From positions 744,001 to 808,000 of the forward strand of contig NZ_PJBB01000003.1 of assembly GCF_002836595.1 (NCBI RefSeq): a stretch of DNA of 64,000 bases, in the 5' to 3' direction. The DNA comes from Tenacibaculum sp. Bg11-29 (lineage in GTDB: Bacteria > Bacteroidota > Bacteroidia > Flavobacteriales > Flavobacteriaceae). The notes beneath the pieces were generated by a model that saw only the letters and a list, made by a program, of their open reading frames with translations, did not search any database and was not told the DNA's origin. The position numbers were made by a program, and so were the translations under genes. This document shows, in pieces, positions 810 to 51,804 of this stretch. Numbering within the stretch: position 1 is the stretch's first letter; every line of letters begins with the position of its first letter.

Positions 810-1826
810 ATGAAAAAACACTTTCCGCTCATAGTAAAAATCAGTTTAATTTCTGTGTATCTTATTTTTTTAGCAGGCTCAGTAGTTCGTATGACAGGTT
901 CTGGAATGGGATGTCCTGATTGGCCAAAGTGTTTTGGGTATTATATTCCCCCAACCTCTGAAGAGCAAATTACTTGGCTACCGAATACGGATTATGAAGA
1001 AGGAATGATTATTGTTAAAAATGAGAAATTATTTGTTGCTGAAAACGATATAAAAACCACAAATGAATTTAATAATAATAACTGGACAACATACACGAAG
1101 CACAGTTATGCAAAATTCAATAAATTGCATACCTGGACAGAATATATCAATAGGTTATCATCTGCTTTAGCTGGAATTCCGTTTTTGTTTCTAGTTTTTG
1201 TTTCTACTAAATTTTGGAGAGAGAAAAAGCTAATCACATTATTATCATTCGGAGCTTTCTTTTTAATGCTTTTTGAAGCTTGGTTAGGAAAAACAGTTGT
1301 TGATACGAATTTAAAACCAACCATTATCACTATTCATATGGTAGCTGGCTTGGTAATTGTTGCCTTGTTATTGTGGTTACTATTTATTGTTTCTGATCGT
1401 AAAAAAACAACTTATAAGCATAACTCTTTACTTAGCAAATTAGTAATTATTTCTGCAGTTTTTTCACTCATTCAAATTGCTTTAGGAACTCAAGTTCGAC
1501 AGTTTATTGATGAACAGGTAAAACTTTTTGGTTTCGATAACAAACACTACAGTTTAATGAATCCTAATTTTAAATTCTACTTTCACCGTTCATTTACTAT
1601 TGCAATTGTACTTGTAAACTTAGGCATATTTTACTTAAATCAGATTAAAGGTTTAGGTTACAAATTAATAAATTGGATTGTTTTCTTGATTTCACTAGAA
1701 ACCGTTACAGGTATTTTAATGTATTATGCCGAATTCCCTTTAGGAACTCAAGCAATACATTTACTCTCTGGAGCAATTTTATTTGGATTGCAATTTTATT
1801 TATGGTTGCAAAGTAGAAAGGTTTAA
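810..1826 (+). CDS. ctaA: Heme A synthase, COX15/CtaA family
   Basis: Inner-membrane protein of 338 residues that converts heme O to heme A for aa3-type cytochrome oxidases. The N-terminus has the family signature SVVRMTGSGMGCPDWPKCFG. Four candidate heme-ligand histidines sit in HTWTEYINRL, HMVAG, HRSFTI and HLLSG, at the ends of membrane helices, as expected for this eight-helix family. Between helix 1 and the first His there is a polar periplasmic loop of about 60 residues. The gene stands alone with its own promoter and converges on the leftward gldD group. Identification by signature is firm; activity is inferred. Confidence 0.93.
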   Translation: MKKHFPLIVKISLISVYLIFLAGSVVRMTGSGMGCPDWPKCFGYYIPPTSEEQITWLPNTDYEEGMIIVKNEKLFVAENDIKTTNEFNNNNWTTYTKHSYAKFNKLHTWTEYINRLSSALAGIPFLFLVFVSTKFWREKKLITLLSFGAFFLMLFEAWLGKTVVDTNLKPTIITIHMVAGLVIVALLLWLLFIVSDRKKTTYKHNSLLSKLVIISAVFSLIQIALGTQVRQFIDEQVKLFGFDNKHYSLMNPNFKFYFHRSFTIAIVLVNLGIFYLNQIKGLGYKLINWIVFLISLETVTGILMYYAEFPLGTQAIHLLSGAILFGLQFYLWLQSRKV

Positions 1827-2924: not shown

Positions 2925-4245
2925 TCCTTGTTGTTTTTACTTGTTTTATACGCTTTTTATCTAACGCTTCAATAGTAAACGTATAAATACTAAAGTTTAT
3001 TTTCTCTCCTTTTTTAGGAAACTTACCAAATACTTCTAAAATAAAACCTGCTAAGGTTTCACTCTCTCCTTTTGCTTCTTCAAATTTCTCTTCCTCATCA
3101 TCATCTAATACTCGACAAAAGTCTCTAATAGTAATCTTTCCTTCAAAAATATAGTTATTCTCATCAATCTTAGAATACGTTAAATCATCATCATCAAATT
3201 CATCATTTATATCACCCACAATCTCCTCTATAACATCTTCTAAAGTTACAATTCCACTAGTCCCACCATATTCGTCAACAACAATTGCTAGGTGTTTTTT
3301 CATTTCTTGAAATTCACTTAACAAGTCGTCTAATTTTTTATTTTCAGGAACAAAAAAGGCTTCTCGTAGCAATTTTTGCCATTTAAAATTCTTTTCGTTT
3401 AAATAAGCCAATAAATCTTTTGCATATAAAACACCTCTAATATTGTCTACATTTTCGTGATACACAGGAATTCTTGAATATCCGTTTTTTAAAATTATTT
3501 TTAAAACCTCCTCGTATGATGTATCATCTGCAATAGCACAAACATCCGTTCTTGGCTTCATAATTTGTACAGTTTCTGTATTTCCAAAACTTACAATTCC
3601 TTCTAAAATTTTTTGTTCTTCTTTTGTAGTTGCTCCACTAGAAGTTAATTCTAAGGCTTGCGATAAGCGTTCTACTGAAAGATTATTGTTTTTATTTCCT
3701 AGCTTATTTTCAACTACACTAGTTAATCTTATAAGCGGTGTACTTAAAGGTGTTAAAAAAAAACTTAAAGCTTTTATAGGCTTTGCCATAAAGCTAGCAA
3801 ACAGCATCGATTTTCTTGTTGCATATACTTTTGGTAATACCTCTCCGAATAATAAAATTAAAAAAGTGATTAATACAATTTCAATTAAAAAAAGTACAGA
3901 TACCTTAAACAGGTATAAATCTAACTGATAATCTAGTCCAGAAAATAACACTTTTCCAATACTAGAAAAAAGCAATACAATAAGAATATTAATAAAGTTA
4001 TTTGTTATTAAAATTGTACCTAGTAGTTTTTTAGGGTTTTTAAGGAGTTTTACAACCGTATTTTCTTCTTTTGATGAAGATGAAAGAGCATCTAGCTGGG
4101 TTTTTGAAATAGAAAAAAAAGCTACTTCAGCTCCAGAAACTAAAGCAGATAAAACTAATAAAAAAAGTAACACTAAACTATTGACCATAGTCAATAAATC
4201 AATGTTTGGTAACGCTAAAAACAAGGAGTTGGGGTCTGTATCCAA
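2917..4245 (-). CDS. gldE: Gliding motility-associated protein GldE (CNNM/HlyC-CorC family)
   Basis: 442 residues. The N-terminal third has four hydrophobic segments (DUF21/CNNM membrane domain, about residues 15-190). A CBS pair follows, including MKPRTDVCAIADD and HLAIVVDEYGGTSGIVTLEDV, then a C-terminal CorC_HlyC domain. The layout resembles CorC-type ion transporters, but the position directly before gldD identifies GldE. It is thought to support or stabilise GldD at the inner membrane. The gene lies 19 bases after ssb. Confidence 0.9.
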   Translation of the reverse strand: MDTDPNSLFLALPNIDLLTMVNSLVLLFLLVLSALVSGAEVAFFSISKTQLDALSSSSKEENTVVKLLKNPKKLLGTILITNNFINILIVLLFSSIGKVLFSGLDYQLDLYLFKVSVLFLIEIVLITFLILLFGEVLPKVYATRKSMLFASFMAKPIKALSFFLTPLSTPLIRLTSVVENKLGNKNNNLSVERLSQALELTSSGATTKEEQKILEGIVSFGNTETVQIMKPRTDVCAIADDTSYEEVLKIILKNGYSRIPVYHENVDNIRGVLYAKDLLAYLNEKNFKWQKLLREAFFVPENKKLDDLLSEFQEMKKHLAIVVDEYGGTSGIVTLEDVIEEIVGDINDEFDDDDLTYSKIDENNYIFEGKITIRDFCRVLDDDEEEKFEEAKGESETLAGFILEVFGKFPKKGEKINFSIYTFTIEALDKKRIKQVKTTRNA

Positions 4246-37152: not shown

Positions 37153-37430
37153 CATCATTACGAGAAAGAATGAATAAAGTAATCTACTAATTAGGAACTC
37201 AAAACACAAAGATTGCTTCCTGCTAGTCGCAATGACGGAACGATTAAAATAACAAAACTAACACTGCTCGTCATTACGAGAAGGGACGACGAAGTAATCT
37301 CTAACATTTAGAACTCAATAACAAACAGATTGCTTTATTCTTCGCAATGACGGAAAAGTTAAAATTGTAAAAAAAATAACACTGCACGTCATTACGAGGA
37401 GGAACGAAGTAATCTCTACAATCGGAACTT
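37153..37430. repeat. Palindromic repeat cluster, left part (2 full copies and 1 half copy)
   Basis: Copies at 37153-37237, 37269-37352, and a left half at 37387-37430. Each full copy has outer arms CGTCATTACGAG / CTCGCAATGACG (approximate) and inner arms ACGAAGTAATCT / AGATTGCTT, forming a hairpin of about 84 bases. The half copy lacks its right arm and runs into the leader of the GIY-YIG gene. Confidence 0.9.
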
Positions 37431-37481
37431 ACAACTTTTAAAAAATTGTTTTACATTTTATAATAACGTAAATTGTAAAGC

Positions 37482-37778
37482 ATGAAAAACCCTTGCATAT
37501 ACTTCTTAACGAATAAAAACAATACTGTTATTTATATTGGGGTAACATCAAACTTAATAAAAAGAATTTACGAACATAAAACTGATAAACATAAAGGTTT
37601 CACGTACAAATACAACTGTAATAAATTGGTATATTATGAAGCGTTTACTTCTATCACCGATGCTATTACCAGAGAAAAAAAATTAAAATCAGGTAATAGG
37701 AAAAAGAAAGAAAATTTAATTAATAAAGAAAATTCTGATTGGCTAGATTTATCCAAAGATTGGCTATTTAATTTCTAA
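37482..37778 (+). CDS. Single-domain GIY-YIG nuclease embedded in palindromic repeats
   Basis: 98 residues, essentially one GIY-YIG domain: CIYFLTNKNNTVIYIGVTSN (YFL..YIG), the Arg in NLIKRIYEHK, and LVYYEAFTSITDAITREKKL with a candidate catalytic Glu. This is the small UPF0213/YhbQ-like class. A full palindromic copy begins immediately after its stop codon (CG at 37779) and a half copy precedes the gene. That arrangement recalls the association of RAYT transposases with REP sequences, but with another nuclease fold. A role in moving or maintaining the repeats is inference. Confidence 0.85.
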   Translation: MKNPCIYFLTNKNNTVIYIGVTSNLIKRIYEHKTDKHKGFTYKYNCNKLVYYEAFTSITDAITREKKLKSGNRKKKENLINKENSDWLDLSKDWLFNF

Positions 37779-38340
37779 CGTCATTACGAGAGAGGTACGA
37801 ACGAAGTAATCTCTATCTTCAGAACTCAATAACAAACAGATTGCTTCGTGCCTCGCAATGACGAAAAGATTAAAACTATAACAACAAAATTAACACTGCA
37901 CGTCATTACAAGAAGGAACGACGAAGTAATCTCTAACATTTAGAACTCATAATAAACAGATTGCTTCGTGCCTCGCAATGACGGAAAGATTAAAATCGTA
38001 ACAACAAAAATAACACTGCACGTCATTACAAGAGAGGTACGAACGAAGTAATCTCCAACATTTAGAACACATAACCAATAGATTGCTTCGTGCCTCGCAA
38101 TGACGGAACGATTAAAATAACAAAAATAACACTGCTCGTCATTACGAGAGAGGCACGAACGAAGTAATCTCTATCTTCAGAACTCAATAACAAACAGATT
38201 GCTTCGTGCCTCGCAATGACGAAAAGATTAAAACTATAACAACAAAATTAACACTGCACGTCATTACAAGAAGGAACGACGAAGTAATCTCCAACATTTA
38301 GAACACATAACCAACAGATTGCTCCATTCTTCGCAATGAC
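37779..38340. repeat. Palindromic repeat cluster, right part (5 copies)
   Basis: Copies at 37779-37863, 37901-37983, 38021-38105, 38137-38221 and 38259-38340. The stems are long: GAGGCACGAACGAAGTAATCT faces AGATTGCTTCGTGCCTC in the best copy. The spacers also repeat (AACACTGCACGTC, AAAACTATAACAAC). The pair at 37779-37983 recurs at 38137-38340, a 358-base tandem duplication. Confidence 0.9.
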
Positions 38341-39292: not shown

Positions 39293-41263
39293 ATGCTTAA
39301 ATATTTTCTCTTTTTTTATTCTCTCTTTTTTATTCAATTTTCTTTTTCACAAACTGAAAAAATAGACTCTGTTTCCTTTTTTTTAAAAAAAGCGGATAAT
39401 CTTTACGGGGCAAAAAAAATTCCTTTTCTTAAAAAAGCTGTTTTTTTTGCTAGTCAATCTAATATTGATTCTTTAATAAGAAAAACAAATATTGAATTAG
39501 GTCTTCATTCTTTTTATAATAACTTAACAAAAGATCTTGTTTTTGCCAATAAAAACCTCAACAAACTCTTTTTAAAAACCAAGGATTCTACTTTATTAGC
39601 AAAACACTTGCATTTTAAAGCATTAGAGCAAAAAAAATTATTAAACATTGATAGTACTTTTTTTTATTATCATCAATCTAAAAACATTTCTAAACAACTA
39701 AAAGACTCCTTAGCCGTTGGTCGCCGTTTATTAAGTATTGCTCTTTTACAAAAAAAATCAAAAGATTATTTAGGAGCAGAAATTAGCTCTATAGAAGCAT
39801 TACAGTATTTGGAGCCTATTCAATCAAATATTTATTTAGAAAGGGCTTACAATGTTTTAGGTTTAGTTTCTGAAGAATTAAATCAAAAAAAAGAAGCTCT
39901 TAAGTATTACACAAAAGCTCTTAAAAACAATAGAATAAATAATAATGATATAGAGTATTTATATATAATTAATAACCTAGGACTTTTACACCAGAATGAA
40001 AACAAATATAAAAAAGCTATTTCATATTTTAAAAAAGGATTGGCTTTTAATAATATTAAAGAAAAACATCCTTTTCAATATACCCTATTATTAGAGAGTT
40101 TAGCCTATAGTGATTATAAATTAGGTAAAAAAGCAGATGTTTTAAAACAGTATAATGAAGTATTAAATATAAGAAAGCAATTAAATAGTCTCAATAGTAT
40201 TAGTACTACCCATATTAACATTTCAAATTACTACAAAGATTTAAATCAAATACAAAAAGCGAAACACCATTCTAGCCAGGCACTAAAATATGCCAAGCAA
40301 ACAAATAATAATAAACGCTGGCTAGAAGCTTTAGAAAACCTTTCAGAATTAACAACAGGAGAGCAATCAAAAAAATATTTACAACAATACATTAAACTTA
40401 ATGATAGCCTGTTTGATAAAGAACGGCAATTAAAAAATCAGTTTGCTAAAATTAGATACGAAACTGATAAAAAAGAAAAAGAGAACGTTGTTTTAAAATC
40501 TGAAAATGAAAAGAAACAAGTAGAAATAGTTTACCATAAACAACAACAAACTATTGGATGGCTGGCAGCTGCAAGTGGTTTATTATTATTTGGGGTAAGT
40601 GTTCTTTTTTTCTTTTTTAGAAGAAAAAAATTATTATACCGAGCGCAGTTAGAAAGAATAGCGGCTAGAGAGCATGAACGCCAACAGATTGCTAAATCAC
40701 TACATGATGAAGTAGCCGGAGACCTACGCTTATTACATCAAAAATTAGAGAAATCGAATTTATTAGAAGAAGCCAAAAAATTGGATGCTGTTAAAGAGAA
40801 TGTTCGTAACCTATCACATCAATTAAGTAGTATTAGTTTTGATAAAGTTTCTTTTAGAGATCAAATAATTAATTTAGTGAGTGATTATTTTGAACTCGAT
40901 TTTAGAATAAAAGTAAGTGGTTTACAAGAATATAATTGGATTACTATAAATGATTCAATTAAACGATTATTATATTTAAGCACTCGTGAGAGTATACAAA
41001 ACTGTAAAAAACACGCTAAAGCTAGTAAAATAGTCATCGATTTTGCTATACAGAAAAATTATGTACTTTTGAGCATTACAGATAATGGCATCGGTTTCGA
41101 CGCTAATATTAGTAAAAAAGGAATTGGTTTACAGAACCTGCAAGAACGTGTTGAGGAGCTAAGCGGCTCTTTAGATATTAAAAGTGAGGTAGGTAACGGA
41201 ACCAAAACCAGTATTCAAATCCCCTTAAATGCCTGGACAAACAAAAATACTATTAGTCGATGA
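39293..41263 (+). CDS. TPR-domain sensor histidine kinase (HisKA_3/NarL-type)
   Basis: 656 residues. Signal peptide MLKYFLFFYSLFFIQFSFSQ, then about 350 residues of tetratricopeptide-like repeats (for example ERAYNVLGLVSEELNQKKEA, YNNLGLLHQN-type units) predicted outside the cytoplasm. One coiled linker and one membrane helix (TIGWLAAASGLLLFGVSVLF, about 421-441) follow. Dimerisation box EHERQQIAKSLHDEVAG with the phospho-His at 471, then a HATPase domain with N-box RESIQNCKKHAKAS, ITDNGIGFD and GIGLQNLQERVEEL. TPR domains often bind peptides, which fits the adjacent small peptide genes; the ligand is inferred. The 3' end overlaps the regulator gene by 35 bases. Confidence 0.9.
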   Translation: MLKYFLFFYSLFFIQFSFSQTEKIDSVSFFLKKADNLYGAKKIPFLKKAVFFASQSNIDSLIRKTNIELGLHSFYNNLTKDLVFANKNLNKLFLKTKDSTLLAKHLHFKALEQKKLLNIDSTFFYYHQSKNISKQLKDSLAVGRRLLSIALLQKKSKDYLGAEISSIEALQYLEPIQSNIYLERAYNVLGLVSEELNQKKEALKYYTKALKNNRINNNDIEYLYIINNLGLLHQNENKYKKAISYFKKGLAFNNIKEKHPFQYTLLLESLAYSDYKLGKKADVLKQYNEVLNIRKQLNSLNSISTTHINISNYYKDLNQIQKAKHHSSQALKYAKQTNNNKRWLEALENLSELTTGEQSKKYLQQYIKLNDSLFDKERQLKNQFAKIRYETDKKEKENVVLKSENEKKQVEIVYHKQQQTIGWLAAASGLLLFGVSVLFFFFRRKKLLYRAQLERIAAREHERQQIAKSLHDEVAGDLRLLHQKLEKSNLLEEAKKLDAVKENVRNLSHQLSSISFDKVSFRDQIINLVSDYFELDFRIKVSGLQEYNWITINDSIKRLLYLSTRESIQNCKKHAKASKIVIDFAIQKNYVLLSITDNGIGFDANISKKGIGLQNLQERVEELSGSLDIKSEVGNGTKTSIQIPLNAWTNKNTISR

Positions 41264-41906
41264 CCATCAGTTAATTCTTGAAGGTATTCTTTCGTATTTG
41301 AAAGATATTGATAATTTACACATAGAAACAGTAAATTCTTGTGATGAAGCACTCTCAAAAATAAAATCAAACCTTGCCGACACGCCATTTCATATTCTTT
41401 TTACTGATTTAAGTTTCGATAATAATGATGGTAATGTAATTTTAGACGGTGGTGAAGCTTTAATAAAAGCAATTCAACAAGAGGGAATTAATATTAAAAC
41501 AGGCGTAATTACTGGTCATTCAGAAACCAACCGTGTGTTTAATGTTATACACAATTTAAACCCTTCTGCTTATATTTTAAAAGGAAATTGTAATACAGAC
41601 GAATTAACGTTTGCAATACAAAAGATGCTAAAGGGTGAAGTATATTACACTCATAAAATACATCAAAAGCTTTTAAAAAGAGCTTTGGTAGAAATTCAAA
41701 TGGATGATATTGCTATTCAGATATTAAAGGAACTACCTAAACATGCTAAAATAAACAACTTAGAAGGTTTTATTAAAAAAGCAGATGGCACTTTAGTTAA
41801 GGTACGATCTATAGAAGGTAAACTTGCAAAACTTCGTACCGATTTACAAGCACATAACAATACCGATTTAGTTCTAAAGGCCAAGGAGTTAGGTATTTTA
41901 GATTAA
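41229..41906 (+). CDS. Response regulator with divergent LuxR/NarL-like output domain
   Basis: 225 residues. Receiver domain KILLVDDHQLILEGILSYL with phospho-acceptor Asp at about residue 60 (ILFTDLSFDNND), a Thr-to-Gly-type switch at VITGHSE, and Lys in AYILKGN. The C-terminal 70 residues (DDIAIQILKELPKH to TDLVLKAKELGILD) align by eye with LuxR helix-turn-helix domains, best at the last helix. The recognition helix is unusual and carries an insertion. It overlaps the kinase gene. Its immediate downstream neighbour is the array of nine repeat-containing promoters, its most likely targets. Confidence 0.85.
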   Translation: MPGQTKILLVDDHQLILEGILSYLKDIDNLHIETVNSCDEALSKIKSNLADTPFHILFTDLSFDNNDGNVILDGGEALIKAIQQEGINIKTGVITGHSETNRVFNVIHNLNPSAYILKGNCNTDELTFAIQKMLKGEVYYTHKIHQKLLKRALVEIQMDDIAIQILKELPKHAKINNLEGFIKKADGTLVKVRSIEGKLAKLRTDLQAHNNTDLVLKAKELGILD

Positions 41907-41980
41907 TTTTTGCGGAAAACCACACGTTTTTTTGCGGTTATCCCTTTTCCCAACCGAAAACCTAGCTATATCTTTGCCTA

Positions 41981-42063
41981 AGAATGTTAAACCATTCTGG
42001 GGAAATTCTAAAAAAAAAGAAAAATTAAAATAAACCTTTCAGTTAATTCTGGAAGGTTTATTT
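41981..42063 (+). ncRNA. Predicted small RNA, array unit 0 (diverged)
   Basis: Repeats at 41911 and 41933, -7 TATCTTTG at 41969-41976. The transcript opens with a small hairpin (AGAATG / CATTCT), contains CTGGGGAAATTC and ends with AAACCTTTCAG / CTGGAAGGTTT. Directly follows the regulator stop codon. Confidence 0.7.
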
Positions 42064-42157
42064 ACTTTATGAACCTTTTATTAAGATACAGAAAACCACA
42101 CGTTTTTTTTGCGGTAATCCCTTTTTTTAAACAAAAACTCTATTATAGATTTGCAGC

Positions 42158-42246
42158 ATCAAGTTTTCGAAGATATGGGGATATAACGAAAAATGATATT
42201 TAAGGGAAAAATTAACCTTCTAGATATTTCTAGAAGGTTTTTTTTA
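42158..42246 (+). ncRNA. Predicted small RNA, array unit 1
   Basis: Second repeat at 42110, -7 TAGATTTG at 42146-42153, core ATGGGGATATAACG, terminator 42214-42245. The first repeat has decayed (ACAGAAAACC). Start position estimated from the -7 element. Confidence 0.75.
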
Positions 42247-42342
42247 TTTAAAAACTAATAAACAATACATTATGCGGTAATCCACACTTTTTTTTGCGGT
42301 TATCCCCTTTTTAAAACAAAAGGTCTATTATATATTTGCAAC

Positions 42343-42427
42343 ATCAAGTTTCGAAGATATGGGGATATAACGAAAATGATATTTAAGGGAAAATCAACCT
42401 TCTAGATACTTCTAGAAGGTTTTTTTA
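42343..42427 (+). ncRNA. Predicted small RNA, array unit 2
   Basis: Repeats at 42273 and 42295, -7 TATATTTG at 42331-42338, core ATGGGGATATAACG then TTTAAGGGAAAA, terminator 42396-42427. Confidence 0.8.
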
Positions 42428-42523
42428 TTTAAAAACTAACAAACAATATATTATACGGTAATCCACACTTTTTTTTGCGGTTATCCCCTTTTTAAAACAA
42501 AAGGTCTATTATATATTTGTAAC

Positions 42524-42608
42524 ATCAAGTTTCGAAAATATGGGGATATAACGAAAATGATATTTAAGGGAAAATCAACCTTCTAGATACTTCTAGAAGG
42601 TTTTTTTA
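42524..42608 (+). ncRNA. Predicted small RNA, array unit 3
   Basis: Repeats at 42454 and 42476, -7 TATATTTG at 42512-42519, terminator 42577-42608. Nearly identical to unit 2. Confidence 0.8.
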
Positions 42609-42705
42609 TTTAAAAACTAACAAACAATATATTATACGGTAATCCACACTTTTTTTTTGCGGTTATCCCCTTTTTAAAACAAAAGGTCTATTATACATTT
42701 GTAAC

Positions 42706-42790
42706 ATCAAGTTTCGAAAATATGGGGATATAACGAAAATGATATTTAAGGGAAAATCAACCTTCTAGATACTTCTAGAAGGTTTTTTTA
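42706..42790 (+). ncRNA. Predicted small RNA, array unit 4
   Basis: Repeats at 42635 and 42658 (23 apart because of one extra T), -7 TACATTTG at 42694-42701, terminator 42759-42790. The 36-base distance to the -7 element is kept despite the extra T. Confidence 0.8.
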
Positions 42791-42886
42791 TTTAAAAACT
42801 AACAACCAATATATTATACGGTAATCCACACTCTTTTTTGCGGTTATCCCCTTTTTAAAACAAAAAGTCTATTATACATTTGTAAC

Positions 42887-42970
42887 ATCAAGTTTCGAAA
42901 ATATGGGGATATAACGAAAATGATATTTAAGGGAAAATCAACCTTCTAGATACTTCTAGAAGGTTTTTTA
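42887..42970 (+). ncRNA. Predicted small RNA, array unit 5
   Basis: Repeats at 42817 and 42839, -7 TACATTTG at 42875-42882, terminator 42940-42970. Confidence 0.8.
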
Positions 42971-43066
42971 TTTAAAAACTAACAAACAATATATTATACG
43001 GTAATCCACACTCTTTTTTGCGGTTATCCCCTTTTTAAAACAAAAAGTCTATTATACATTTGTAGC

Positions 43067-43153
43067 ATCAAGTTTTCGAAGGTATGGGGATATAACGAAA
43101 ATGATATTTAAAGGGAAAATTAACCTTCTAGACATTTCTAGAAGGTTTTTTTA
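43067..43153 (+). ncRNA. Predicted small RNA, array unit 6
   Basis: Repeats at 42997 and 43019, -7 TACATTTG at 43055-43062, core TATGGGGATATAACG, terminator 43122-43153. An extra A in the second G-rich block shifts any short frame relative to units 2-5. Confidence 0.8.
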
Positions 43154-43250
43154 TTTAAAAACCTAAATAATATCAAGTTTTGCATAAATCCACATGTTTT
43201 TTTGCGGTTATCCCCTTTTTAGAACAAAAAATCTATTATACATTTGTAAC

Positions 43251-43338
43251 ATCAAGTTTCGAAGATATGAAGGGTATAACGAAAATGATATTTAAGGGGA
43301 AAATTAACCTTCTAGACATTTCTAGAAGGTTTTTTTTA
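43251..43338 (+). ncRNA. Predicted small RNA, array unit 7
   Basis: Repeats at 43181 (weak, TGCATAAATCC) and 43203, -7 TACATTTG at 43239-43246, core ATGAAGGGTATAACG instead of ATGGGGATATAACG, terminator 43306-43338. Confidence 0.75.
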
Positions 43339-43365
43339 TTTAAAAAACTAAAAAACAGCAAGTTA

Positions 43366-43431
43366 TGCGTAAATCCACATGTTTTTTTGCGGTAATCCCC
43401 TTTTTAAAACTATTCTTTTACAATACCTTTA
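43366..43431 (+). promoter_or_regulatory. Array unit 8 promoter driving the 33-residue peptide
   Basis: Repeats at 43366 (TGCGTAAATCC) and 43388 (TGCGGTAATCC), 22 apart. TACCTTTA at 43424-43431 stands where the -7 element is expected, again 36 bases after the second repeat. Confidence 0.75.
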
Positions 43432-43481
43432 CAGTGTTCTTTTGAACAAAAAATAAGGGGATTAATTAAATATTTAAAAAA

Positions 43482-43583
43482 ATGGGGATTTTTTTACTAA
43501 AAAAAACTGCAAGTATTTTAAACGGAGTTTTATCAGCATTATCAGAATTAGGTAAGGGAGCTGGTTACGCTTTAAAACACTAA
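43482..43583 (+). CDS. 33-residue amphipathic peptide encoded by the last array unit
   Basis: ATG at 43482, TAA at 43581. Starts MGIFLLKKTASILNGVLSAL, ends GKGAGYALKH. A short hydrophobic start is followed by an amphipathic, Gly/Ala/Ser-containing helix with several small-residue pairs and net positive charge. The size and pattern are like leaderless bacteriocins or small membrane-active peptides, but no family is recognised. Its first codons, ATGGGGAT, are shared with the core of the non-coding units, where the frame stops at once (ATGGGGATATAA). The 5' UTR has a GTTC/GAAC hairpin and a GGGGAT copy. Confidence 0.7.
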   Translation: MGIFLLKKTASILNGVLSALSELGKGAGYALKH

Positions 43584-43608
43584 TAGTAGTTACTTAACAA
43601 AAGGTTTA

Positions 43609-43644
43609 AAACCTTCTTGATAAAATTATCAAGAAGGTTTTTTA
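43609..43644 (+). terminator. Terminator of the 33-residue peptide gene
   Basis: Inverted repeat AAACCTTCTTGAT / ATCAAGAAGGTTT followed by T6. It is a longer relative of the array hairpins (CCTTCTAGA / TCTAGAAGG). Confidence 0.88.
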
Positions 43645-50287: not shown

Positions 50288-50625
50288 ATTTTTGAAGGAG
50301 CTCATCTTAGATACTGGGGGGTTGACATTTTGAGTACTTCTTCTTTATTTATTACTATTTAGGTAAAATAAATAGACCTATATACCAAAACCTTAAACAT
50401 CACCGTTACTTAATAAAAGTACTAAGATTATTTTTGAAAAGGCTCATCTTAGATACTGGGGGTTGACATTTTGAGTCCTTCTTCTTTATTTATTACTATT
50501 TAGGTAAAATAAATAGACCTATATACCAAAACCTTAAACATCACCGTTACTTAATAAAAGTACTAAGATTATTTTTGAAAAGGCTCATCTTAGATACTGG
50601 GGGGTTGACATTTTGAGTCCTTTTC
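50288..50625 (+). repeat. Tandem 142-bp repeat (two full and one partial copy)
   Basis: The core CTCATCTTAGATACTGGGGG starts at 50301, 50443 and 50584 (steps 142 and 141). In copies 2 and 3 TATTTTTG, a -7 match, lies just before AAAGGCTCA. After a G5-6 loop comes TGAGTCCTT with a T-rich tail, so each unit reads like a promoter, a 45-base hairpin RNA and a terminator. The third copy ends at the gcdH stop and can also serve gcdH as terminator from the other strand. Confidence 0.85.
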
Positions 50626-51804
50626 TTATTTAAAAGCGTTTAAACCCGTAATATCTAATCCTGTAATTAATAAATGAACATCGTGCGTTCCTTCATAAGT
50701 AATTACACTTTCTAAATTCATGGAATGCCTCATTATAGAATATTCCCCTGAAATACCCATAGCGCCTAAAATTTGCCTTGCTTCTCTAGCTATTTTTATC
50801 GCCATATCAACATTATTACGTTTTGCCATTGATATCTGTGCAGAAGTTGCACGTTCTTCATTTTTCAAAACACCTAACCTCCATGTTAATAATTGTGCTT
50901 TTGTAATTTCTGTGATCATTTCTGCTAACTTTTTTTGTTGCAACTGAAATTGACCAATCGGTTTACCAAATTGCATACGTTCTTTAGCATAACGTAAAGC
51001 TGTATCGTAACAATCCATCGCAGCACCAATAACGCCCCAAGCAATACCATAACGAGCAGCATCTAAACACAATAAAGGTGCTCCTAATCCTGATTTGTTA
51101 GGTAATAAATTTTCTTTAGGCACTTTTACATTATCAAAAATAAGCTCACCTGTAATTGATGCTCTTAATGACCATTTATTATGTGTTTCTGGAGTAGAAA
51201 AACCCTCCATACCTCTTTCTACAATTAATCCATGAATACGACCTTCTTCATTTTTCGCCCACACCACAGCAACATCACAAATCGGAGCATTAGAAATCCA
51301 CATTTTTGCACCATTTAATACATAATGGTCACCCATATCTTTAAACTTGGTTTCCATACCTGATGGATTACTTCCATGATTTGGCTCAGTTAAGCCAAAA
51401 CTTCCCATCCATTCACCAGAAGCTAATTTTGGTAAATATTTTTTCCGTTGCGCTTCGTTACCATAATTATAAATAGGCCCCATTACTAACGAAGATTGTA
51501 CCGAAGCTGTAGATCTAATTCCGCTATCGCCACGCTCTAACTCTTGCATAATTAGTCCATAAGAAATTTGATCTAACCCTGCACCACCATAATTTTGCGG
51601 AATATAAGAACCAAAAGCACCAACCTCAGCTAAACCAGGTATTAATTGCATTGGAAATTTAGCCTCTTGTGCTGCATCTTCAATAATTGGAGATATATTT
51701 TTCTTAACCCATTCACGAGCCGTATCGCGCACAAGTTTATGTTCATCTGTTAACAAATCATCAGTTTGGTAATAATCAGGAGCTTGAAATAAATCGGGTT
51801 TCAT
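50626..51804 (-). CDS. gcdH: Glutaryl-CoA dehydrogenase-like acyl-CoA dehydrogenase
   Basis: 392 residues. FAD enzyme of lysine/tryptophan breakdown that oxidises and decarboxylates glutaryl-CoA to crotonyl-CoA. FGLTEPNHGSNPSGM is the acyl-CoA dehydrogenase signature, RMQFGKPIGQFQLQQKKLA the second. The catalytic Glu is in the C-terminal TYEGTHDVHLLITG, a form typical of glutaryl-CoA dehydrogenase. Divergent from rnpA with 140 bases between. Confidence 0.87.
   Translation of the reverse strand: MKPDLFQAPDYYQTDDLLTDEHKLVRDTAREWVKKNISPIIEDAAQEAKFPMQLIPGLAEVGAFGSYIPQNYGGAGLDQISYGLIMQELERGDSGIRSTASVQSSLVMGPIYNYGNEAQRKKYLPKLASGEWMGSFGLTEPNHGSNPSGMETKFKDMGDHYVLNGAKMWISNAPICDVAVVWAKNEEGRIHGLIVERGMEGFSTPETHNKWSLRASITGELIFDNVKVPKENLLPNKSGLGAPLLCLDAARYGIAWGVIGAAMDCYDTALRYAKERMQFGKPIGQFQLQQKKLAEMITEITKAQLLTWRLGVLKNEERATSAQISMAKRNNVDMAIKIAREARQILGAMGISGEYSIMRHSMNLESVITYEGTHDVHLLITGLDITGLNAFK

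What the first reader, a model, noticed from the sequence alone, without database searches (positions are those of the whole stretch)
41907..43644. Tandem array of nine promoter units encoding short G-rich RNAs beside a two-component system
Seen: nine units of about 182 bp, each with two direct repeats, a TAnnTTTG-type -7 element, a short transcript region of about 85 bases and a terminator hairpin with T tail. The hairpins and the TGGGGA core are conserved, but no reading frame is: single-base indels and stops differ between units. This is the pattern of a small-RNA family, not of genes. Known analogies: csRNAs under CiaRH in streptococci and RsmY/RsmZ under GacA. Inference: the adjacent regulator switches on many copies of one sRNA, perhaps to titrate a protein or mRNA through the G-rich core. 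I do not know this array as a described system.
Basis: partly seen in the sequence, partly recalled or inferred. Interest (0 to 1): 0.95.

Follow-up and report, generated by a model that had tools for sequence, protein, structure and literature searches.

The report
Regulator-driven array of G-tract small RNAs
Just after a sensor and regulator gene pair, this marine bacterium carries nine copies of a switchable promoter: eight appear to make short RNAs that expose runs of G, one a tiny protein, and the arrangement looks like a way to soak up an RNA-binding protein in an organism that lacks the usual one.

Summary
The array is real. Nine promoters (41912-43643) follow a TPR histidine kinase and a NarL/VraR-type response regulator in a Tenacibaculum genome. 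Each has two imperfect palindromes 22-23 bp apart and a -7 element at a fixed distance. Units 1-8 read as short noncoding RNAs: 5' hairpin, exposed GGGA/GGGG tract, terminator (weak in unit 1).

The promoter follows the regulator gene in 31 of 31 orthologous loci (1-15 copies). GGG[GA] occurs in the first 75 nt of 85 of 87 units from 28 of them; two of the three most distant orthologues lack it. Two relatives alternate RNA and peptide units. A second, paralogous kinase/regulator pair has four such promoters with another operator, also yielding G-tract RNAs; six of seven relatives' loci keep one. No Rfam family matches. CsrA, RRM and Hfq were not found.

Best reading: sibling small RNAs under a two-component regulator, probably working like Gac/Rsm decoys for an unidentified RNA-binding factor. 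Promoter geometry and RNA anatomy rest on comparison; expression, activation, decoy role and partner are inferred.

The parts
39293..41263 (+). Sensor histidine kinase: TPR region, one predicted membrane helix near residues 424-442, HATPase_c; N-terminal signal peptide read by eye
   Evidence: Pfam TPR and HATPase_c; hydropathy
41229..41906 (+). Response regulator of NarL/VraR type; its profile aligns with VraR over receiver and output region
   Evidence: Pfam Response_reg only; profile hit to VraR chains 4gvp/7ve6, positions 3-219; the AlphaFold model was low-confidence and is not used
41912..42059 (+). Unit 1 (type A): boxes 41912-41923 and 41934-41945, -7 41969-41976, GGGG at 41999, terminator hairpin 42032-42059 with weak T tail
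42088..42245 (+). Unit 2 (type B sRNA): boxes 42088/42111, -7 42146-42153, G tracts 42177 and 42204, T run 42238-42245
42274..42426 (+). Unit 3 (type B): boxes 42274/42296, -7 42331-42338, G tracts 42361 and 42387, T run 42420-42426
42455..42607 (+). Unit 4 (type B): boxes 42455/42477, -7 42512-42519, G tracts 42542 and 42568, T run 42601-42607
42636..42789 (+). Unit 5 (type B): boxes 42636/42659, -7 42694-42701, G tracts 42724 and 42750, T run 42783-42789
42818..42969 (+). Unit 6 (type B): boxes 42818/42840, -7 42875-42882, G tracts 42905 and 42931, T run 42964-42969
42998..43152 (+). Unit 7 (type B): boxes 42998/43020, -7 43055-43062, G tracts 43086 and 43113, T run 43146-43152
43182..43337 (+). 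Unit 8 (type B): boxes 43182/43204, -7 43239-43246, G tract 43296 (the upstream core reads AAGGGTA), T run 43330-43337
43367..43643 (+). Unit 9 (type C, peptide unit): boxes 43367/43389, -7-like TACCTTTA 43424-43431, G tracts 43457 and 43484, T run 43638-43643
43482..43583 (+). ORF of 33 codons, MGIFLLKKTASILNGVLSALSELGKGAGYALKH; start codon lies in AUGGGGAU

Best explanation
A two-component system switches on a battery of sibling small RNAs. The NarL/VraR-type regulator binds, as dimers, two palindromes centred near -42 and -64 (counted from a start inferred 5-7 bases after the -7 element), a usual place for an activator that touches RNA polymerase. Units 2-8 each make an RNA of about 80-90 nt: 5' hairpin, exposed GGG[GA] core, terminator. 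The G core is the active part. I propose that it is a decoy for an RNA-binding factor, not CsrA, an RRM protein or Hfq, which otherwise holds G-core mRNAs; the peptide mRNA of unit 9, with the same hairpin plus AAGGGGA leader and an AUGGGGA start, would be one such target. When the kinase is active, many decoys free the target. Copy number sets the dose, so the array grows and shrinks by tandem duplication. Supported by sequence comparison: promoter geometry, linkage to the regulator, RNA anatomy, G-core conservation, peptide conservation. Inferred: binding by this regulator, activation, expression, the decoy action, the partner protein, and any effect on the peptide.
For: GGG[GA] in the first 75 nt of 85 of 87 units (75 of 77 distinct), against 9.1% of 4966 background 75-mers. 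The first such tract is unpaired with mean probability 0.69 vs 0.42 when the rest is shuffled, higher in 60 of 75. The part 5' of the AAGGG core folds better than shuffles: 45 distinct, mean z -2.0, 80% below -1. In 15 aligned type B RNAs the hairpin sequence changes but TTnAGGG is invariant (A at n in 14), and ORFs are not shared. In 11 of 11 RNAs of the mostly single-unit clade a second hairpin has GGG in or beside its loop, partly paired by G-U in a few. Unlinked type B units in one conserved intergenic place in four relatives, two with clear boxes. A second kinase/regulator pair with another operator, same geometry and G-tract RNAs. Wide divergence with fixed G motifs is what a review gives for Csr/Rsm RNAs as opposed to base-pairing siblings (PMC4211561, section 14 read).
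Against: No transcript data. No partner protein known; CsrA, RRM and Hfq models find nothing in this genome. TTAAGGGGAW is not enriched in the genome (16 vs 20 reversed); 15 of the 16 hits lie outside the array in no clear common setting, so a wide target set is not visible with that exact motif. Of the three most distant orthologues, L048 and L050 have the promoter but no GGG[GA] in the first 75 nt, and in L049 the promoter precedes a protein gene. The unit at L051:1363 and the first L019 unit lack the tract. The unlinked unit of G003 has no box pair (score 21), those of G002 and the own genome score just under my cut (26.5 vs 27), and the own one has lost the core. No kinase match upstream in L030, L031 and L049. 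One of seven second-system loci, L160, has no such promoter even with a looser search. Loci are related by descent, so counts are not independent. The loop motif is GGG, not strictly the GGA of Csr.
Confidence: 0.5

Rival explanations
1. Base-pairing sibling sRNAs (like csRNAs): the exposed G tract is a seed that pairs with C-rich stretches of target mRNAs; the array gives dose.
For: Exposed conserved G core between hairpin and terminator; multicopy siblings under one regulator are known to act this way (PMC4507080, passages read).
Against: Outside the short TTnAGGG core and the terminator arm the type B RNAs diverge; the two systems share only GGGGAAA-like cores, little for target choice. No target search was run.
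Confidence: 0.25
2. Peptide-centred system: the RNAs are by-products or remnants of peptide units, and the real output is the 33-residue peptide (secreted signal, antimicrobial or membrane peptide), loosely like Agr with RNAIII and delta-haemolysin.
For: Peptide in 11 of 28 loci, amplified to six linked copies in G002 and five in G003, alternating with RNA units; conserved GKGAGYALKH-like tail; a TPR sensor could bind a peptide (inference).
Against: 17 of 28 loci, including all 13 of the mostly single-unit clade, have RNA units but no peptide in the array; RNA units conserve structure, not coding remnants. Amphipathicity exceeds shuffles clearly only in some copies.
Confidence: 0.12
3. Type I toxin-antitoxin: type B RNAs are antisense antitoxins of the peptide mRNA.
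For: Small peptide beside sRNA genes; in the window pair the predicted duplex is at the 5% edge of shuffles.
Against: RNA and mRNA share the core in the same sense. With terminators trimmed, duplexes reach the best 5% of shuffles in 2 of 8 species pairs and are weaker than the shuffle mean in 3.
Confidence: 0.03
4. Operator decoys: the repeated palindromes serve to titrate the regulator protein, and the transcripts are incidental.
For: Many operators in one place; degenerate box 1 in some units.
Against: -7 spacing is kept in 87 of 87 units and RNA structure is kept; loci with a single unit could hardly titrate.
Confidence: 0.05

Closest known systems
Gac/Rsm and BarA/UvrY-Csr (RsmX/Y/Z, CsrB/C)
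   Same: Two-component regulator activating sibling sRNAs with G motifs in loops or single strands; great sequence divergence with the motif kept (PMC4211561, section 14 read; that GacA/UvrY is NarL-type is recalled)
   Different: No CsrA/RsmA found; loop motif GGG rather than GGA; tandem array of up to 15 after the regulator; a peptide gene carries the same leader
CiaRH csRNAs of streptococci
   Same: One response regulator, several similar sRNAs
   Different: Different regulator class (CiaR is OmpR-type, recalled) and organism; csRNAs target comC mRNA (PMC4507080, passages); in S. pneumoniae two are in tandem and the others at distal sites (PMC4211561, passages)
FopS / RbpB of Bacteroides thetaiotaomicron
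   Same: Multicopy sRNA family in Bacteroidota
   Different: 14 paralogues in that genome; FopS-10 blocks a susC mRNA and RbpB, an RRM protein as recalled, counteracts it (PMC11697453, passages); no RRM match in this genome, no Rfam match of the array
Rfp18 of Flavobacterium psychrophilum
   Same: Structured, conserved flavobacterial sRNA
Agr RNAIII / delta-haemolysin
   Same: Two-component regulator with repeated operators driving a regulatory RNA and a small amphipathic peptide (recalled)
   Different: Here RNA and peptide are separate units in an array; different regulator class (recalled)

Membership tests
Csr/Rsm system | CsrA/RsmA protein in the genome | tested here: not met
   PF02599 finds nothing in G000 while 3 of 14 control genomes ring
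[quoted passage not shown]
   GGG[GA] in 85 of 87 units and mostly unpaired, but some loops read AGGGGTTT or AGGGGCTT without GGA
Csr/Rsm system | sRNA genes activated by a GacA/UvrY-type response regulator | not testable with these tools
   Regulator is NarL/VraR-type by profile and operators sit at activator positions; activation itself needs experiment
CiaRH csRNAs | CiaR (OmpR-type) regulator | tested here: not met
   Best PDB sequence matches are VraR and RcsB; that CiaR is OmpR-type is recalled
CiaRH csRNAs | Base pairing to target mRNA | not tested
   No target prediction run
FopS family | Match to the FopS sequence/structure family | tested here: inconclusive
   No such match at gathering score in the window nor at E<=1 in the array; the paper says the family was deposited in Rfam, but I did not verify that this copy holds it
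FopS family | RRM protein partner (RbpB) | tested here: not met
   PF00076 finds nothing in G000; a Bacteroides control genome rings
Hfq-dependent sRNAs | Hfq in the genome | tested here: not met
   PF17209 finds nothing in G000, rings in 5 of 14 controls
Type I toxin-antitoxin | Antisense complementarity of sRNA to peptide mRNA | tested here: inconclusive
   Duplex energies in the best 5% of shuffles in 2 of 8 pairs, weaker than the mean in 3; no conserved complementarity
Any Rfam family | Match above gathering score | tested here: not met
   Only a tRNA in the window; at relaxed E only sub-threshold hits such as PyrR 34.3 of 54 bits; one weak sub-threshold hit in 10 of the fetched related loci

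The most novel reading that the evidence does not exclude
Tenacibaculum and relatives run a Gac/Rsm-like post-transcriptional circuit without CsrA: at least two paralogous TPR-kinase/VraR-type regulators, with different and drifting operators, feed RNAs that share only an exposed GGGGA(A) core, so a still unknown RNA-binding protein is the hub, and tandem copy number tunes the decoy dose.
Probability: 0.35. Interest if true: 0.9.

Novelty: new variant of a known kind. Interest (0 to 1): 0.74.

Why it matters
Many Bacteroidota are thought to lack Hfq and CsrA (recalled; neither is found in this genome), and how their small RNAs work is a long-standing gap. This gives a defined, conserved sRNA family with a regulator, an operator, a core motif and a co-regulated peptide, with the theme repeated in two paralogous systems. 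The G core is an obvious bait for fishing out the missing RNA-binding partner. The arrays also offer a natural series of 1 to 15 copies for testing sRNA dose.

Tried and rejected
Antisense pairing of type B RNAs with the peptide mRNA: not consistent across species. A micro-ORF in the RNAs: MGI* occurs in the window, L039 and L040; in 15 type B RNAs the longest ATG ORFs differ and two RNAs have none. Complementarity of the RNA core to the promoter's ATCCCC box: by eye it fails in L041, where the boxes change and the RNA core stays. A wide target set by exact motif: not enriched. Weak covariance-model hits (E 1e-4 to 1e-2, also in other families and on both strands) were taken as mostly generic terminators and not followed one by one; one checked hit (G024, E 4e-5) was only a terminator after a gene. 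RNAalifold on the mostly single-unit clade found only the terminator; the G-loop hairpins were then folded one by one. AlphaFold model of the regulator: mean pLDDT 54.6, so no fold search. NCBIfam gave nothing for the peptide. Literature: no description of this array seen in the listings (open-licence PMC only; no preprints); Rfp18's supplement was not available. Regulator-paralogue loci L032-L034, L036, L038 and own-genome L076-L078 showed no G-tract array on reading 0.7 to 1.3 kb downstream.
Full report
What is there. The window comes from a Tenacibaculum-like genome; the closest named relative found is T. ovolyticum DSM 18103, whose regulator is 99% identical. A histidine kinase with TPR repeats (39293-41263) and a response regulator (41229-41906) are followed at once by nine promoter units, then by an FGGY-family kinase gene, probably glpK (domains). 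All nine units carry two 12-bp boxes, mostly GCGGwwwwCCnC, 22 bp apart in seven units and 23 bp in two, and a -7 element 35 bp after the start of box 2. The genome-wide pattern search with this geometry gives 18 sites against 1 for the reversed pattern; the 18 include all nine units, four of them with two mismatches.

The nine units are of three types. Unit 1 (type A) has a GGGGAAATTCT core after a small hairpin. Units 2-8 (type B) have a 5' hairpin, in most a first G tract inside it, a TTAAGGG or TTAAAGGG core and a terminator. Units 3-6 are nearly identical (97-100% in the transcript), so the array grew by recent tandem duplication. Unit 9 (type C) has the same kind of start (hairpin, then AAGGGGA) but goes on into a 33-codon ORF whose start codon sits in AUGGGGAU.

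Relatives. Orthologues of the regulator (57-100% identity) were taken from 23 of 59 genomes searched, the own one included, and from 5 further named genomes (whose 7 loci include two genomes already held): 28 loci. A fixed score on boxes and -7 finds 87 units in them: 15 in G002, 14 in G003, 9 in the window, 1-5 in the others. The threshold of 27 was set after seeing the scores; the highest noise in the part of the output that I could see (it was cut) was 25. The T. ovolyticum array holds a run of N, so its 5 is a lower bound. The first unit starts within about 40 nt of the regulator stop in most loci, about 250 nt in G002. A homologue of the kinase lies upstream in 26 of 30 loci other than the window; L051 was too short to show it (its longer neighbour L017 shows it by eye), and L030, L031 and L049 gave no match in the 1.5 kb held. 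Three more distant orthologues from a draw of 299 family genomes (46-57% identity; the draw held 5 matches, two already known) were scored afterwards: all three have the promoter after the regulator gene. In two of them the following 75 nt have no GGG[GA]; in the third the promoter leads into a protein gene and its GGGA lies in that gene. These three count against the G core being universal.

The RNAs. GGG[GA] occurs in the first 75 nt of 85 of 87 units, 75 of 77 distinct sequences; GGGG in 64 of 87. The background is 9.1% and 3.4% of 4966 75-mers of the window outside the array. The first tract is unpaired with mean probability 0.69, against 0.42 when the rest of the RNA is shuffled; it is higher in 60 of 75 (Wilcoxon 7e-9, but the sequences are related). 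The stretch before the AAGGG core folds better than dinucleotide shuffles (45 distinct stretches of all types, mean z -2.0, 80% below -1; type A of G002 and G003 does not). Among 15 type B RNAs the hairpin is rebuilt from different sequence, whereas TTnAGGG (A at n in 14) and the terminator arm stay. Their longest ATG ORFs share no common peptide and two have none. In the mostly single-unit clade (13 loci, one with two units) a second hairpin places GGG in or beside its loop in all 11 RNAs folded, with different stems and some G-U pairing of the tract. RNAalifold on the automatic alignment recovered only the terminator, so I do not claim statistical covariation for that hairpin.

The peptide. 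It is present in 11 of 28 arrays, in six linked copies in G002 and five in G003, where RNA and peptide units alternate. Fourteen distinct sequences share a GKGAGYALKH-like tail. The profile finds no clear match in the other 298 family genomes drawn (two weak hits, E 0.003, one with a stop) and matches in 5 of 44 relatives. Orphan copies occur outside the array in this genome (C3:1286526, and a weak one at C3:2539681), G002, G003, G012 and weakly G022. Of the seven orphans whose surroundings I read (L084, L085, L119, L120, two in L121, L122), none shows a clear box pair to the eye and six have GGGA or GGGG in the leader; L085 does not. In four of them a Lys-Gly pair is written AAG GGG inside AAGGGGATTC, three of these as TTAAGGGGATTC. 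In 11 genes of the window AAG is 54 of 387 Lys codons and GGG 17 of 222 Gly codons. The four are orthologues or near duplicates, so this is a hint, not proof, that the RNA motif matters to the peptide mRNA.

Beyond the array. A covariance model of type B finds the known units and, at E below 1e-8, unlinked units in G003, G002, G022 and G017, which by eye face the same neighbouring gene. Scored like the others, the boxes of G022 (32.5) and G017 (29.5) pass, that of G002 falls just short (26.5), and G003 has none (21.0). The own genome has a counterpart (box score 26.5) whose core is lost (E 2.5e-4). One more box pair in the own genome lies before a small ORF (C3:1897686, minus strand).

A second system. 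The pattern search also hit four tandem promoters at C3:4007740-4009082. They have another operator (AAGGGAG..CCTCAC type), the same spacing and -7 offset, and would make RNAs with GTCGGGGAAAATTC or GTCGGGGGAAATTC. They lie near a paralogous TPR kinase/regulator pair. Regulator orthologues of at least 64% identity exist in nine relatives; I fetched seven of these neighbourhoods (not G031 and G027). A search that assumes no box sequence, only two similar 16-mers 22 bp apart plus TAnnTTTG, finds exactly one promoter in six of seven. The seventh, L160, gave none, also with looser settings, although its stretch reaches about 3 kb beyond the kinase start. The same search finds none in 66.5 kb of other loci and on average 0.15 (at most 1) in shuffles of the seven loci. 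The box sequence differs between species (AAGTCAnTGACTT, AGGGnAAAnCCCT, AGCCnAAAnGGCT) while geometry is fixed, and all ten RNAs (six plus the own four) have GGG[GA] within 110 nt. The RNAs here are longer and looser than in the first system, and in some no terminator was evident.

How it most likely works. The regulator belongs to the NarL/VraR class by profile; the structure model was too poor to add to this. Its boxes stand where class II activators stand. The kinase's signal is unknown. Noncoding units that share little beyond hairpin, G core and terminator, and a second system that shares only the G core, point to recognition of the core by something common. Base pairing usually preserves a longer seed; protein decoys tolerate divergence (PMC4211561, section 14). 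The genome has no detectable CsrA, RRM or Hfq, so the factor would be new. The peptide mRNA, with the core in its leader and at its start codon, is the natural candidate target. I put 0.5 on this chain as a whole; the first half (regulator-controlled small RNAs) is far more secure than the second (decoys).

Against it. The exact motif TTAAGGGGAW is not more frequent in the genome than its reverse (16 vs 20), so no broad target set shows. No expression data were available. The antisense model was tested and is not consistent across species, though the window pair itself is at the 5% edge. The literature searches showed no description of the array; of the Rfp18, FopS and csRNA papers I read passages only, of the review by the title 'Sibling rivalry' one section and passages, and of PMC9029176 passages.

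Verdict. A real, conserved and, as far as searched, undescribed family of regulator-linked sibling small RNAs with a co-regulated small peptide. It works like known sRNA batteries under two-component systems but meets the full membership test of none of them: a new variant of a known kind, with an unexcluded chance of a CsrA-free decoy system.

Noticed in passing
L075 4581-6131 (own genome C3:4007580-4009130, minus strand): Second tandem array of four promoters with a different operator near a paralogous TPR kinase/regulator pair; its RNAs carry a GGGGAAA core and a six-codon ORF MKKILL*/MKKLLR*.
   Followed up: yes
L157, L158, L159, L161, L162, L163 (promoters near the second regulator): Operator half-sites differ between species (AGTCA, AGGG, AGCC) inside a near-constant frame AAAGTA..TA(C)TAAA(A)GTA..TACC: apparent co-evolution of operator and regulator.
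   Followed up: partly
L079 about 3290-3560 on the minus strand (own genome near C3:2700500): Two further short G-rich candidate RNAs after a box-pair promoter, one a hairpin with a GGGG loop (TTTAAATCC-GGGG-GGATTTAAA); no regulator-type gene among the ORFs of 80 or more residues listed, by eye.
   Followed up: partly
L035 about 1500-1700 (reverse strand reading): A more distant regulator paralogue in G006 is also followed by a candidate short RNA with AGGGGGA and GAGGGGAAATTG and a terminator-like hairpin.
   Followed up: partly
L084, L120, L121, L122: Orphan copies of the peptide in one conserved place before a gene that looks like a uracil-DNA glycosylase (by eye), with a GGGA-type leader but no clear regulator boxes.
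   Followed up: partly
window 37195-38340: Tandem repeats of about 115-120 bp (ACGTCATT..CGCAATGACG motif), unrelated to the array.
   Followed up: no
window 50288-50632: A 141-bp sequence repeated 2.5 times at 96% matches, between two genes.
   Followed up: no
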